51,010 nucleotides of DNA from Actinomycetota bacterium. Its GTDB lineage: Bacteria > Actinomycetota > Humimicrobiia > Humimicrobiales > Humimicrobiaceae. Shown piece after piece: positions 35,861-51,010 of the stretch; position 1 is the stretch's first letter, and each line of letters starts with the position of its first letter. The DNA is taken from positions 1 through 51,010 of the forward strand of contig JAPLCN010000144.1 in the NCBI GenBank assembly GCA_026392215.1, written 5' to 3'. The notes below the pieces were generated by a model that made no database searches, had not been told where the DNA came from, and was given only the letters and a program-made list of their open reading frames with translations. The position numbers and the translations under genes are program-made.

Positions 35861-36841
35861 GTGCCAATAGGACAGAAATCAACCTTCAGTAGTGATGTTC
35901 GGGAAGCTGGAAATCGACCCTTGAGCAGCAAAAATATTCATATCGGGTTTAGAGAAGCCAAATGGGAAAGGGTTCGATTTTACACCCTATTTGCTTGGCG
36001 CTTTATTGTACTGCGACGTCTGGAACCGCTCTTCTACGGTATTGCGGTGACGGATCGTTGCAACCTTGGATGCCGTGGTTGTAAAGTTTCAAATACCGGT
36101 CGTCCTGACATGACGTGGGACCAGCTTATCAATACGATGCAGAACGCATGGAGACGTGGATTCCGTGAGTTGTACTTTAGCGGCGGAGAACCGATGCTGT
36201 GGTGTGATGGAGTACGTACTCTGGAGGATGCAGTTGTTGAGGCAAGGCGGATAGGTTTTTTCCATGTACACGTTTATACAAACGGTACACTCGGACTCGA
36301 TATCCCGGCTGACCTTGTTTGGGTTAGTATGGACGGGCTTCCTGGTACTTTCGAGATGAGACGAGGTAATCATTTCAATCAAGTCGAACATGCAGTCCGC
36401 AAGAATCAGAACCGGAAGATTGCAGTCATATATGTCATTGATAGCAACACCAACAATGGTGTTGAACCATTTTTACAATGGGTGAGTGAAACAAAGTTTC
36501 CTATTATTGGTGTAATGTTCTATTTTCATACACCATATTATGGACTCGATGAGCTGTTCCTTACAGCTGAAGAGCGTGCACCGATAATCGACCGTCTTCT
36601 TGGTTATAAACGAGCGGGGCTGCCAATAATCAACTCGAGAGCTGGACTTCTAGCACTAAAGTCCGGCAACTGGCCGAGGCGTTTATCTGTTACCTATGTA
36701 GCGGATATCGATGGTGAGTATGTCTGCTGTCGTGCGTCAGATGACATATGTGTGAACTGCGGTTACGCCGCCTGCACCGAGATTACGGAGTTTCGACGTC
36801 TACGACCAAGTGCTATACTAGGCATGAGGAGATATTTGTGA
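35861..36841 (+). CDS. Radical SAM protein, function unknown (coupled to HemN-like gene)
   Basis: A 326-residue radical SAM enzyme. The SAM/4Fe-4S site is VTDRCNLGCRGCKVSN (Cys 67/71/74), followed by LYFSGGEPM, the glycine/acidic motif that contacts SAM. Cysteines near the end (VCCRASDDICVNCGYAAC) could hold an auxiliary cluster in a SPASM-like way. The overall look is of the MoaA/PqqE/HpnH superfamily; substrate unknown. GTG start after GTGAGG. Its stop overlaps the next gene's GTG by four bases (GTGA), so both proteins are probably made together. Base composition is visibly richer in G+C than the neighbours, and codon use differs, suggesting transfer. Confidence 0.8.
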   Translation: MPIGQKSTFSSDVREAGNRPLSSKNIHIGFREAKWERVRFYTLFAWRFIVLRRLEPLFYGIAVTDRCNLGCRGCKVSNTGRPDMTWDQLINTMQNAWRRGFRELYFSGGEPMLWCDGVRTLEDAVVEARRIGFFHVHVYTNGTLGLDIPADLVWVSMDGLPGTFEMRRGNHFNQVEHAVRKNQNRKIAVIYVIDSNTNNGVEPFLQWVSETKFPIIGVMFYFHTPYYGLDELFLTAEERAPIIDRLLGYKRAGLPIINSRAGLLALKSGNWPRRLSVTYVADIDGEYVCCRASDDICVNCGYAACTEITEFRRLRPSAILGMRRYL

Positions 36842-38133
36842 GTAAGTGCGGCAACATATTATCGCAAATTGTAACGCGCGCCATACGCCGCTGCCTCGTT
36901 GGCCCTAATCAACAATGGCGCTTTGATCCGCCCCCGCAGGACTGGACACCTCCGCCTGTAAAACAAACCTCGCTGTATCTGCATGTACCCTTCTGCCGTA
37001 ACTGCTGTCCATACTGCCCTTATACCAAAGTAACTTATGATGAAATGTTGGTAGGCCCCTATACGCAGGCTGCTCTTGCAGAGGTCAACTGGTGGGCTGA
37101 TAAAATTGGGCATGCTGAAATAACGAGTATTTATATCGGCGGTGGCACTCCAACGCTTGCGTTGGACAGTGTAGCAAGAATACTAACACTAATACGTAAA
37201 AAATTCCGCCTGACGGGTGATATATGTATTGAGACAAATCCCTCTGACGTGGATGATATTACGATACAGAAATTACATGATTCAAATGTCTCACTTGTTT
37301 CACTTGGTGTGCAATCATTTCGTTCCGAGAACCTTAAGGTTATAGGACGCAATTATGAATCAACCGTTGCAGAGCACGCACTTACCCTGCTCGTCAATGG
37401 CGGCTTTGCCTCGGTTAACGTGGATCTTATGTTCGCTTTGCCTGGCCAGACAGTTGGCGATGTGATTAAAGATCTTGCCAAAGCTACCAAGCTTGGAGCA
37501 AGTCAGATCACTACATACCCGCTCTTCACATTTCCTTATACATCGATAGGTAGATACCTAAACCTGACATCAGTGCGTATGCCGGACCTGCGAGTTCGTA
37601 GGTCGCACTACCGGGCAATTACCGAGTGGTGTGTGGAACATGATTTCAAACGAGTGTCTGTGTGGGGGTTCAAACGTGGTGCCGTTCCTCGTTACTCTTC
37701 AGTTACAAGGGATAGCTATATCGGTATTGGTCCTGGTGCTGGTTCGCACCTGCCAGATGAATTTGTGATAAACACATTCGATCTCAATAGCTGGATACAC
37801 GTAATGTGTGAAGGACGTACAGCAATCGCTCTGCGAATGCCGTTTACTGTTGAGATGTCTAATTGGTGGTGGTTGTACTGGCGCTTTTATGATACACGAA
37901 TACCAATGGACTGCTTCAAAGCGTACTTCGGTAAAGAAACCCGCAAAGCTCACCGCTTATTTAGAGTCATGGAGCTGATCGGATTCGCGGTACATAACGA
38001 GGGATATCTTGAACTCACAGAGCCGGGTGCGTTTTGGCTTCACCTTGTGCAAAATCACTTCGCGCTAAGTTACATCAACACATTGTGGACCCAAGCACGA
38101 CGTGTCCCGTGGCCGCAGACGGTTGTTATCTAA
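36838..38133 (+). CDS. HemN/HemW-like radical SAM protein (possible class C methyltransferase or related)
   Basis: About 431 residues. The SAM site LYLHVPFCRNCCPYCPY (Cys 53/57/60, plus an extra Cys 56) is of the HemN/HemW type, with YIGGGTPT, CIETNPSD, SLGVQSFRSENLKVIGR and DLMFALPGQT following in family order, and a C-terminal helical domain. True coproporphyrinogen oxidase or the HemW haem chaperone is possible, but this family also contains class C radical SAM methyltransferases and cyclopropanases of natural-product pathways. Coupling to a second radical SAM gene in a GC-rich transferred segment favours a specialised role. The start is moved from the track's 36748 to GTG 36838, which has GAGGAG upstream and overlaps the previous stop. 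Confidence 0.8.
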   Translation: MSKCGNILSQIVTRAIRRCLVGPNQQWRFDPPPQDWTPPPVKQTSLYLHVPFCRNCCPYCPYTKVTYDEMLVGPYTQAALAEVNWWADKIGHAEITSIYIGGGTPTLALDSVARILTLIRKKFRLTGDICIETNPSDVDDITIQKLHDSNVSLVSLGVQSFRSENLKVIGRNYESTVAEHALTLLVNGGFASVNVDLMFALPGQTVGDVIKDLAKATKLGASQITTYPLFTFPYTSIGRYLNLTSVRMPDLRVRRSHYRAITEWCVEHDFKRVSVWGFKRGAVPRYSSVTRDSYIGIGPGAGSHLPDEFVINTFDLNSWIHVMCEGRTAIALRMPFTVEMSNWWWLYWRFYDTRIPMDCFKAYFGKETRKAHRLFRVMELIGFAVHNEGYLELTEPGAFWLHLVQNHFALSYINTLWTQARRVPWPQTVVI

Positions 38134-47707: not shown

Positions 47708-47787
47708 CGGGGTGTAGCGCAGCCTTGGTTTAGCGCACCTGCTTTGGGAGCAGGGGGTCGGAGGTTCAAATCCTCTCACCCCGACCA
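47708..47787 (+). tRNA. tRNA-Pro (anticodon TGG)
   Basis: The acceptor CGGGGTG pairs with CACCCCG; encoded CCA; anticodon loop CTTTGGGAG gives TGG; T-arm GGAGGTTCAAATCCTCT. The D-loop is longer than usual (80 bases in total). Immediately followed, without a T-run, by the tRNA-linked element described next. Confidence 0.95.
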
Positions 47788-48014
47788 GTACTTTGAAAGT
47801 AAAAGTTAGCTTTGATTGGAGTTTAAATACGCCGGTGGCATATTTAAACAAAAGGATTTGAATGGACGGACTGAAGGCGGCAGCCGAAGGAGTCCGCGGC
47901 TCTGCAGCGAGCGATAGCGAGACGAAAGACCAAATCCTCTCACCCCGACCAGTACTTTGAAAGTAAAAGTTAGCTTTGGTTGGAGTTTAAATACGCCTGT
48001 GGCATATTTAAACA
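47788..48014 (+). mobile_element. tRNA 3'-end-linked element at tRNA-Pro
   Basis: Structure: spacer with hairpin GTTTAAATA-c-GCC-GGT-GGC-a-TATTTAAAC (47821-47849); GGATTTG (47854-47860), complementary to CAAATCC of tRNA-Pro; a GC-rich core with GGACT / AGTCC and GCGAGCGATAGCGAGAC (47861-47930); an exact copy of the last 21 bases of tRNA-Pro (47931-47951); then a second copy of the spacer (47952-48014). The 84-base block starting in the T-loop is thus present twice, 164 bases apart. No ORF; the track lines here are shadows. Confidence 0.85.
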
Positions 48015-48756: not shown

Positions 48757-49953
48757 ATGAGTAGAAAAATAAGATTATTAATAATTTTTACTGTTATTTT
48801 ATGTTTGTCTTTTACTTTTATTCCTAACAATATATATGCAGCTACAAAAACCCAGGCGACTGATTTTGTAACAAGATTTTATACACATATTCTGGAAAGA
48901 AATCCTGATGCTGCAGGCCTTGATAGCCATGTAAAACAAATATTAAAAAAACAGATTACCGGGGCTCAACTTGCATATAATTTTGTGTTCAGTGCAGAGT
49001 TTTCTGCAAAAAATAAGAGTAATGAAGATTATTTAAAGATTCTTTTCAGGGCTTGCTTTAACAGGGAAGCTGATTCTGCCTCTTATGGCAACTGGCTGAA
49101 TTTATTAAACAAGGGCTATTCCCGCCAGTATGTGCTGGCAGGTTTTGTAAATGCGGATGAATTTAAAAACCTTTGCGGCAGCTATGGCGTAAAGGCAGGA
49201 AGCCTTGACGGGGGATCGATTCCTCAAATAACCGCAACTCAAATACCTATAATAGAATTGCACGGGATTGAAAATAGTCCAATGGGAAGATATGAAATTA
49301 GTGCCGGAGCTTTTGATTATATGTGCGGCACTTTAAAAAATATGGGATATGAAACAATCACACTCATTGATTTATATAATCATTTTGCAAAAGGCACAAA
49401 ACTGCCTGCTAAACCGGTTATTATTACAGCTGATGATGGTTATCAAAGCATGTATACTACTGCATTCCCAATCCTTAAAAAATATAAATACAAAATGACT
49501 GTTTTTTTAATTACAAGCTTTATTGGTGATAATGAAAAAACAAGAAGATTAAATGATTTTGACAGCGGTATGGAAAATATACCGCAAAGGGCGATGCTGA
49601 CATGGCCGGAAATCGGACAGATGAGTAAGTATGGCTTGGAATTTCAATCTCATTCATGGGGCCACACTATAATGAGCAATATTCCTATAGACAGGGCAAA
49701 ATTTGAACTTATTCAGTCAAAGCATGATATAGAACTGCATACTGGGAAGCCTGTTATATTTATTGCATGGCCTCACGGGGCAAGTTCAGATGAAGTAATT
49801 TCATTATTGCCACAAGTCGGTTATGTCGGGGCATTAAATGCATCTGGCGGCGTTCAAAGTCTGACGTCAATTGATTTAACCAGATTAAACAGAGTTGAGA
49901 TTGTTTCAGGGATTCCTCCCCAGGCTTATGCAGAAGTTTTAAATCTGCACTAA
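48757..49953 (+). CDS. Secreted DUF4214-polysaccharide deacetylase
   Basis: A 398-residue protein with signal peptide (residues 1-28, cleavage near IYAATK). Residues ~33-140 form a DUF4214 domain (FVTRFYTHILERNPDAAGLD, repeated as LFRACFNREADSASYGNWL). Residues ~190-398 form a NodB-type polysaccharide deacetylase: ITADDGYQSM (catalytic/metal Asp), FQSHSWGHTIM (metal His pair) and WPHGASSDEV. It probably removes acetyl groups from extracellular or cell-wall glycans; DUF4214 may bind the substrate or S-layer. Clear ribosome site CAGGAGAAAG. It stands alone between tRNA genes. Confidence 0.88.
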   Translation: MSRKIRLLIIFTVILCLSFTFIPNNIYAATKTQATDFVTRFYTHILERNPDAAGLDSHVKQILKKQITGAQLAYNFVFSAEFSAKNKSNEDYLKILFRACFNREADSASYGNWLNLLNKGYSRQYVLAGFVNADEFKNLCGSYGVKAGSLDGGSIPQITATQIPIIELHGIENSPMGRYEISAGAFDYMCGTLKNMGYETITLIDLYNHFAKGTKLPAKPVIITADDGYQSMYTTAFPILKKYKYKMTVFLITSFIGDNEKTRRLNDFDSGMENIPQRAMLTWPEIGQMSKYGLEFQSHSWGHTIMSNIPIDRAKFELIQSKHDIELHTGKPVIFIAWPHGASSDEVISLLPQVGYVGALNASGGVQSLTSIDLTRLNRVEIVSGIPPQAYAEVLNLH

Positions 49954-50129: not shown

Positions 50130-50206
50130 GCGCTTGTAGCTCAGCTGGATAGAGCTACGGACTTCTAATCCGTAGGTCGGGGGTTCGAATCCCTCCAAGC
50201 GCACCA
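50130..50206 (+). tRNA. tRNA-Arg (anticodon TCT)
   Basis: GCGCTTG pairs with CAAGCGC; encoded CCA; anticodon stem ACGGA / TCCGT with loop CTTCTAA; T-arm GGGGGTTCGAATCCCTC. No T-run follows; two tRNA-linked elements do. Confidence 0.97.
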
Positions 50207-50375
50207 TTGAACTTTGATAATTTATTTGCAACTTTAGATAAGAGTTTAAATCTGCCGGTGGCTGATTTAAACAAAGGGATTCGAATGGACGGAGCGAAGG
50301 CGACAGCCGAGTGAGTCCGCGGCTACGTAAGCGAGCGATAGCGAGACGAAAGACCGAATCCCTCCAAGCGCACCA
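50207..50375 (+). mobile_element. tRNA 3'-end-linked element at tRNA-Arg(TCT), long copy
   Basis: Spacer with hairpin GTTTAAATC-t-GCC-GGT-GGC-t-GATTTAAAC (50244-50272), the inverted T-arm piece GGGATTCG (50276-50283), core GGACGGAGCGAAGGC...GCGAGACGAAAGAC, and an exact copy of the last 21 bases of this tRNA (50355-50375). Distance between tRNA 3' ends: 169 bases. Confidence 0.85.
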
Positions 50376-50497
50376 TGATACTTTGGTTTTAAGTTTTAAA
50401 ACTTTGAATGGACGGAGCGAAGGCGACAGCCGAGTGAGTCCGCGGCTCTGCAGCGAGCGATAGCGAGACGAAAGACCGAATCCCTCCAAGCGCACCA
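50376..50497 (+). mobile_element. Short second element in tandem at tRNA-Arg(TCT)
   Basis: A 122-base unit with a different spacer (palindrome AAGTTTTAAAACTT in place of the long hairpin), no full inverted T-arm (only TTTGAATGG), the same core, and again the exact 21-base tRNA-Arg(TCT) end (50477-50497). A further near-copy of the same spacer (AGATACTTTGG...) follows. The 381-base minus ORF in the track (50118-50498) is a shadow of these repeats. Confidence 0.85.
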
Positions 50498-50739: not shown

Positions 50740-50816
50740 GCGCCTGTAGCTCAGCTGGATAGAGCGACGGACTTCGAATCCGAAGGCCGGGGGTTCGAAT
50801 CCCTCCAGGCGTGCCA
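50740..50816 (+). tRNA. tRNA-Arg (anticodon TCG)
   Basis: Acceptor GCGCCTG / CAGGCGT with a G1-U72 wobble; encoded CCA; anticodon loop CTTCGAA; anticodon stem ACGGA / TCCGA, with an A27-A43 mismatch at its base. T-arm GGGGGTTCGAATCCCTC. Followed by a tRNA-linked element. The two weak pairs may be tolerated or may mark early decay. Confidence 0.93.
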
Positions 50817-51010
50817 AACACTTTAAAGTTTAAAGAATAACTTTTGATTAGAGTTTAAATATGCCTGTGGCTTATTTAAACAAAGGGATTCGAAAGGACG
50901 GAGTGAAGCGAAGCGTAATGAGTCCGCGTCTCTGCAGCGAACGATAGTGAGACGAAAGAACGAATCCCTCCAGGCGTGCCAAACACTTTAAAGTTTAAAG
51001 AATAACTTTT
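50817..51010 (+). mobile_element. tRNA 3'-end-linked element at tRNA-Arg(TCG), continues to window edge
   Basis: Spacer with hairpin GTTTAAATA-TGCC-TGT-GGCT-TATTTAAAC (50853-50881), inverted T-arm GGGATTCG (50885-50892), a more diverged core (GGACGGAGTGAAGCGAAGC, GTCTC / GAGAC), an exact copy of this tRNA's last 21 bases including its T72 (50961-50981), and the start of another spacer copy (50982-51010). A further unit may follow outside the window. Confidence 0.85.

What the first reader, a model, noticed from the sequence alone, without database searches (positions are those of the whole stretch)
47854..47951. Core termini pair with, and covary with, the host tRNA T-arm
In the three long copies the core is enclosed by an inverted pair: GGATTTG...CAAATCC at tRNA-Pro and GGGATTCG...CGAATCCC at both tRNA-Arg loci. 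The right member is the tRNA's own 3' T-arm; the left member has changed to match it. So either the element copied the tRNA end in both orientations when it inserted (hairpin-primed or strand-switching synthesis), or selection keeps a closed stem with a tRNA 3' tail. Both would be unusual.
Basis: partly seen in the sequence, partly recalled or inferred. Interest (0 to 1): 0.75.

Follow-up and report, generated by a model that had tools for sequence, protein, structure and literature searches.

The report
Gene-free folded cassettes in tRNA genes
A short gene-free DNA element sits at the ends of many tRNA and tmRNA genes of one uncultivated bacterial family, and one of its arms nearly always matches the particular tRNA it sits in, as if a closed stem is kept by selection while the elements move and swap parts.

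Summary
About 140 copies from 24 genomes of one GTDB family (Humimicrobium relatives, Actinomycetota) share one plan: gene end (nt 56-76), spacer, hairpin P0, left arm, core, then a second copy of nt 56-76. Hosts are tRNAs for 13 amino acids plus tmRNA. Over 97 gene-by-genome loci the left arm complements host nt 56-63 in 746 of 776 bases (shuffled mean 628, maximum 655), and it follows the T-arm allele where one gene has different alleles in different species. Complementarity is 8 nt long; beyond it, chance. The other helices covary too. So the stem closes a conserved fold and is not a copying scar: cores spread between loci, and some still carry a donor's left arm and a mismatched stem. The displaced gene end, an empty site at tmRNA and a whole-unit replacement at tRNA-Trp mark integrated mini-islands of about 160 bp with the junction at T-loop 55/56. 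Wobble pairs are rare and mostly without strand bias, which favours folded DNA over RNA. No dedicated recombinase was found. Best reading: non-autonomous integrative cassettes with a folded, attC-like attachment site; enzyme unknown.

The parts
47708..47787 (+). host tRNA-Pro(TGG); nt 56-76 (47767-47787) is the element-borne gene end in the integration reading
   Evidence: ARAGORN; empty-site and replacement logic
47788..47820 (+). A-rich spacer of the unit (33 nt here, 32-49 elsewhere)
   Evidence: spacer+P0 tracks host gene across species
47821..47849 (+). P0, 29-nt hairpin GTTTAAATACGCCGGTGGCATATTTAAAC
   Evidence: paired changes in 11 of 13 pairs; 1339 Watson-Crick, 12 GT, 19 AC pairs over 122 hairpins
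47853..47860 (+). left arm (P1 5' strand) AGGATTTG, reverse complement of tRNA nt 56-63
47861..47930 (+). core with helices P2, P3, P4, P5
47931..47938 (+). right arm (P1 3' strand) CAAATCCT, second copy of tRNA nt 56-63
47939..47951 (+). second copy of tRNA nt 64-76 (displaced gene end)
   Evidence: identical to the host tRNA here and in 82 of 89 loci
47952..48013 (+). second spacer and P0, probably the remnant of a truncated tandem unit
   Evidence: the repeat finder D7
50130..50206 (+). host tRNA-Arg(TCT)
50244..50272 (+). P0 of the tRNA-Arg(TCT) unit
50276..50283 (+). left arm GGGATTCG of the tRNA-Arg(TCT) unit
50284..50354 (+). core of the tRNA-Arg(TCT) unit
50355..50375 (+). second copy of tRNA-Arg(TCT) nt 56-76
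50376..50497 (+). second tandem unit at tRNA-Arg(TCT): shorter spacer, left arm lost (ACTTTG), core, third copy of nt 56-76 (50477-50497)
50740..50816 (+). host tRNA-Arg(TCG)
50853..50881 (+). P0 of the tRNA-Arg(TCG) unit
50885..50892 (+). left arm GGGATTCG of the tRNA-Arg(TCG) unit
50893..50960 (+). core of the tRNA-Arg(TCG) unit
50961..50981 (+). second copy of tRNA-Arg(TCG) nt 56-76; the array runs on to the contig end
   Evidence: contig C42 ends in another copy of the same unit (L010)

Best explanation
These are very small (about 150-220 bp), gene-free integrative elements. They are inserted in the T-loop of tRNA and tmRNA genes between nt 55 and 56. Each carries a copy of nt 56-76 that restores the gene and pushes the original end downstream. 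The left arm is the inverse of the element's own nt 56-63. In the free element, or in single-stranded DNA, left arm and gene end close stem P1 of a conserved branched fold (P1 with P2/P3 and P4/P5, next to hairpin P0). Shown: the anatomy, the displaced gene end, an empty site, a whole-unit replacement at one site, the covariation, core exchange between loci, and mismatched stems as the exception. Inferred: that selection keeps P1 because the folded DNA is the recombination site, as in integron attC sites, and that the recombinase acts in trans, possibly host XerC/XerD or an enzyme not identified.
For: Covariation of P1 with the host. Whole fold: 94.7% of cells paired against 83.2% shuffled, 277 against 71 cells changed on both sides, 0 of 500 shuffles, slid structures 30-46%. 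Unguided mutual information ranks P5, P3, P1, P4 and P2 pairs on top. Match is 8 nt long. Right gene end identical to host nt 64-76 in 82 of 89 loci. Empty tmRNA site in G027 against a filled one in G022 with the same downstream gene; spacer not present in the empty site. Trp locus: same native flank in G022, G032, G034 and G033, but G033 has a different unit with its own T-arm allele CGAGTCCC and left arm GGGACTCG, while the displaced copy keeps CGAATCCC. Perfect tandem arrays. Spacer+P0 follows the host gene (40 of 61 nearest neighbours), core does not (14 of 61). Transferred cores bring the donor's left arm. Wobble not RNA-like: P1 4 GT, 12 AC; P0 12 GT, 19 AC.
Against: No recombinase is tied to the elements: genomes with only two tyrosine recombinases carry them, no integron integrase passes the cut-off, and reverse transcriptases, serine recombinases and Y1 transposases do not track them. 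No free circle or excision was seen; no read data were available. No element with cargo genes was found. P3 shows strongly top-strand GT pairs (62 against 3), unlike the other helices. The G033 Trp replacement is a single case.
Confidence: 0.55

Rival explanations
1. Structured RNA read together with the tRNA. The fold acts in the 3' trailer of the tRNA transcript, for example in processing or stability, and the arm pairs with a tRNA 3' end as part of that RNA.
For: All copies are in sense with the tRNA; a branched fold with strong covariation; P3 favours top-strand GT pairs.
Against: GT pairs are almost absent and not more common than AC pairs in P0 and P1, unlike typical RNA helices. The right gene end beyond P1 is conserved although it is outside the fold. 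Copies are missing from the same gene in close relatives. Tandem arrays and whole-unit replacement fit DNA mobility better.
Confidence: 0.2
2. Relics only. Deletion derivatives of an old phage or island family with a T-loop attachment site, now immobile and kept similar by gene conversion.
For: Many truncated units; a truncated integrase gene abuts the unit at the G022 tmRNA; no recombinase found in trans.
Against: Covariation in all helices, intact displaced gene ends and perfect tandem copies suggest current function or recent activity.
Confidence: 0.15
3. Mutational maintenance. P1 and P0 stay complementary mainly because template switching in replication turns imperfect inverted repeats into perfect ones, without selection for a stem.
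For: Almost no wobble intermediates and no strand bias in P0 and P1; template switching can create and maintain hairpins (PMC8794818).
Against: It does not explain the fixed 8-nt length, the conserved core motifs, the short covarying helices P2, P4, P5, or why the right arm stays identical to the gene while the left arm changes.
Confidence: 0.07
4. One reading: insertion by hairpin-primed or strand-switching synthesis that lays down the tRNA end in both orientations.
For: The left arm is an inverted copy of nt 56-63 at every gene type.
Against: The copied length does not vary; transferred cores carry the donor's arm and stay mismatched; at G033 Trp the arm matches the incoming gene end, not the target.
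Confidence: 0.03

Closest known systems
tRNA/tmRNA-targeted integrative islands (Islander, PMC4383910)
   Same: Target gene restored by the element, displaced 3' fragment marks the far end, tandem arrays, tRNA and tmRNA targets
   Different: About 160 bp, no integrase or any gene, present at many tRNA types per genome, conserved folded core with an arm matched to the host T-arm
Integron cassette attC sites (PMC2727003)
   Same: Inverse core box complementary to the core box at the crossover, 7-8 nt, closing a folded site; arrays of units
   Different: No integron integrase, no cassette genes, arm sequence varies with the host tRNA, branched fold instead of one long hairpin, strand use not established
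Filamentous-phage type elements integrated by XerC/XerD (IMEX; PMC4246890, abstract)
   Same: Element without its own integrase; carriers here include genomes with only two tyrosine recombinases
   Different: Target is the tRNA T-loop, not dif; no phage genes
Mycobacteriophage Ms6 attachment site (PMC1762012, abstract)
   Same: attB in the T-loop of a tRNA gene
   Different: Full phage with its own integrase, one tRNA type
Cis-mobilizable elements (CIMEs; own knowledge, the term is used in PMC5704250)
   Same: att-flanked DNA without recombinase genes
   Different: CIMEs carry cargo and derive from an ICE; no parent element was found here

Membership tests
tRNA/tmRNA-targeted integrative island | gene restored plus displaced 3' fragment | tested here: met
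   nt 56-76 present twice; right copy in native flank
tRNA/tmRNA-targeted integrative island | integrase gene inside the element | tested here: not met
   units of about 150-220 bp without room for a gene; carriers with only two tyrosine recombinases
tRNA/tmRNA-targeted integrative island | excised circular form | not testable with these tools
   assemblies only
Integron attC/cassette | inverse core box complementary to core box at the crossover | tested here: met
   8-bp P1, 90 of 97 loci perfect over inner 7
Integron attC/cassette | integron integrase IntI in the genome | tested here: not met
   TIGR02249: 0 of 35 genomes over the cut-off
Integron attC/cassette | bottom-strand folding with extrahelical bases | tested here: inconclusive
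   one unpaired base in P4; GT/AC counts give no clear strand
Integron attC/cassette | cassette carries an ORF | tested here: not met
   complete units are too short for one
Xer-dependent element (IMEX) | integration at dif by XerC/XerD | tested here: not met
   sites are tRNA or tmRNA genes; whether Xer enzymes act on them is untested
REP/RAYT or IS200-type element | Y1 transposase in genomes that carry it | tested here: not met
   PF01797 not found in G001, G003, G010, G016, G018, G029 and other carriers
Known structured RNA family | match to an Rfam model | tested here: not met
   only tRNA and tmRNA in the window

The most novel reading that the evidence does not exclude
An integron-like system that uses ordinary tRNA and tmRNA T-loops as insertion sites: free single-stranded cassettes fold so that the element's own gene end and its inverse arm form the half-site, and a host recombinase inserts them without any integron integrase.
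Probability: 0.3. Interest if true: 0.9.

Novelty: new variant of a known kind. Interest (0 to 1): 0.74.

Why it matters
It gives a natural, replicated test of how a mobile DNA end is tied to its target: the same fold is remade at many tRNA genes and follows the target allele. If the folded DNA is the recombination substrate, it extends structure-guided recombination beyond integrons and filamentous phages to tRNA genes, with very small elements of about 160 bp. Many copies lie at contig ends, so they probably also break assemblies of these genomes; the covariance models made here would let them be annotated.

Tried and rejected
Hammerhead or other ribozyme reading of the core: no Rfam match and the motifs do not fit by eye. 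Group I or II intron in the tRNA: ends and size do not fit, and the upstream gene copy is the intact one. RNA splicing of the unit: loci with a lost right copy keep an intact first copy, so splicing is not needed. Long target-site duplication: in the tmRNA empty site the spacer is absent, so it came with the element. Elements on phages, plasmids or viral contigs: none found. Wider spread in the phylum: no match in 373 of 396 Actinomycetota genomes; all 23 carriers are in the window's family. Enzyme by co-occurrence: RT, serine recombinases, Y1 transposases and IntI all fail. A first regular expression for the left arm misread many loci and was replaced by the model alignment. One literature search failed on syntax; no paper describing these elements was found.

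Full report
What was checked. The finding names an inverted pair around the core at 47854-47951 and the same at two tRNA-Arg genes. All three are in the sequence. The right member is nt 56-63 of a second copy of the tRNA 3' end (nt 56-76); the left member is its exact reverse complement over 8 nt in each of the three.

How general it is. The core was found 12 times in the window's own genome, just 3' of tRNA genes wherever the contig allows a check. A covariance model built with the arms left unpaired found copies in 24 of the 35 genomes of the window's GTDB family and in none of 26 genomes outside it. A later model with the arms paired matched 23 of 396 Actinomycetota genomes, all in that family. 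Named records of the family are Actinomycetota MAGs and Candidatus Humimicrobium oleiphilum. Hosts are tRNAs for 13 amino acids and tmRNA.

Covariation with the host. Over 97 gene-by-genome loci, 746 of 776 arm bases are complementary; the mean after shuffling left arms is 628 and the largest of 10,000 shuffles is 655. Loci perfect over the inner seven bases: 90, against 26 shuffled, or 43 when shuffled only within a genome. Twelve host genes have different T-arm alleles in different species, and the left arm follows: tRNA-Asp CGAATCCC/CAAATCCC, tRNA-Trp CGAATCCC/CGAGTCCC, tRNA-Arg(ACG) three alleles, tmRNA CGATTCCC/CGACTCCC and others.

The stem is one of several. With the proposed helices P0 to P5, 94.7% of cells pair against 83.2% in shuffles; 277 cells are changed on both sides against 71; no shuffle of 500 reaches any measure; sliding the partner by one to three columns gives 30-46%. 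Mutual information computed without any structure puts pairs of P5, P3, P1, P4 and P2 at the top. One control is limited: relatedness inflates shuffle tests, so the allele-following cases are the cleaner evidence.

Copying or selection. The complementary stretch is 8 nt (7 in some loci, where the outermost pair fails); the next bases outwards match at the rate expected from composition (0.26, 0.22, 0.14 against 0.28, 0.23, 0.09). In many species P0 directly abuts the arm. Cores are exchanged between loci while spacer and P0 stay with the host gene; in G004 tRNA-Arg(TCT) and tRNA-Pro(TGG) share an identical long core but have different P0 and arms. In G026 and G032, and less clearly G022, a moved core still has its donor's left arm and so a mismatched stem. 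Template switching may speed this up (PMC8794818).

What the unit is. The right gene copy lies in the native flank. At tmRNA, G027 has an empty site and G022 a unit, with the same downstream gene. At tRNA-Trp four species of one genus share the native flank; three have one group of units and G033 has another, with its own T-arm allele and matching arm, next to a displaced copy with the old allele. This is the signature of integration into tRNA genes, where the element restores the gene and leaves a displaced fragment (PMC4383910). The second gene end is intact over nt 64-76 in 82 of 89 loci, although it is not needed for the tRNA; truncated units lose it. Recent or continuing turnover is the simplest reason (inference).

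DNA or RNA. In RNA helices GT (GU) pairs should be common and AC pairs rare. P1 has 4 GT and 12 AC; P0 has 1339 Watson-Crick, 12 GT and 19 AC. Only P3 shows many top-strand GT pairs, and its alignment is the least certain. I take this as moderate evidence for folded or cruciform DNA.

Mechanism, as far as it goes. An inverse box complementary to the box that holds the crossover, closing a folded site, is the anatomy of integron attC sites (PMC2727003). Here the arm must follow the host gene because nt 56-63 of that gene are the other half. No integron integrase passes its cut-off in any of 35 genomes. Several carriers of good completeness have only two tyrosine recombinases, most likely XerC and XerD (the assignment is inference), and XerC/XerD integrate vibriophage genomes that lack an integrase (PMC4246890). 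The enzyme therefore remains open. A group II intron sits inside one left arm, just after P0, a placement that fits introns which target DNA hairpins (own knowledge of group IIC introns).

Verdict. Observation confirmed and strengthened. Explanation: gene-free integrative cassettes with a conserved fold; stem kept by selection. The confidence that P1 is a selected stem is about 0.85; the confidence of the full model, with folded DNA as the recombination site, is about 0.55. I found no description of these elements in the held literature, which is not complete.

Noticed in passing
L176 (G009:C126:3500-9000), about 522-2400: A group II intron with a reverse transcriptase gene is inserted inside the left arm (AGGATT|TG) of the tRNA-Pro element, right after hairpin P0.
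   Followed up: partly
L172 (G022:C80:4000-7600), about 900-2250: At the G022 tmRNA about 1.4 kb of other DNA, with a truncated tyrosine integrase gene, lies between the tmRNA and the element; the first 100 or so bases after the tmRNA resemble those after the window's own tmRNA (34441 on), which may be the end of another tmRNA-targeted island.
   Followed up: partly
G001:C109 and C51, G004:C258, G007:C85, G022:C166, G028:C303 and C325: Clusters of three or more tandem tyrosine recombinase genes that look like recombinase-in-trio (RIT) elements.
   Followed up: no
G002 tmRNA (L153), G018 tmRNA (L154): Spacer and P0 hairpin present after the tmRNA but no left arm or core; either a decayed unit or an earlier state.
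   Followed up: partly
L089, L090, L103, L112 (genome G005, genus g2): P5 in some copies is a perfect hairpin with loop AGCA (for example CAAATCC AGCA GGATTTG) in place of the usual GA-rich form.
   Followed up: no
L114, L131, L036: Copies of the core with no tRNA gene close upstream; L114 and L131 share a similar upstream sequence in two species.
   Followed up: no
window 35861-38133: Two radical SAM protein genes in a stretch of clearly higher G+C (47% against about 34%).
   Followed up: partly
window 48757-49953: Gene with DUF4214 domains and a polysaccharide deacetylase domain between tRNA-Gly and tRNA-Arg.
   Followed up: partly
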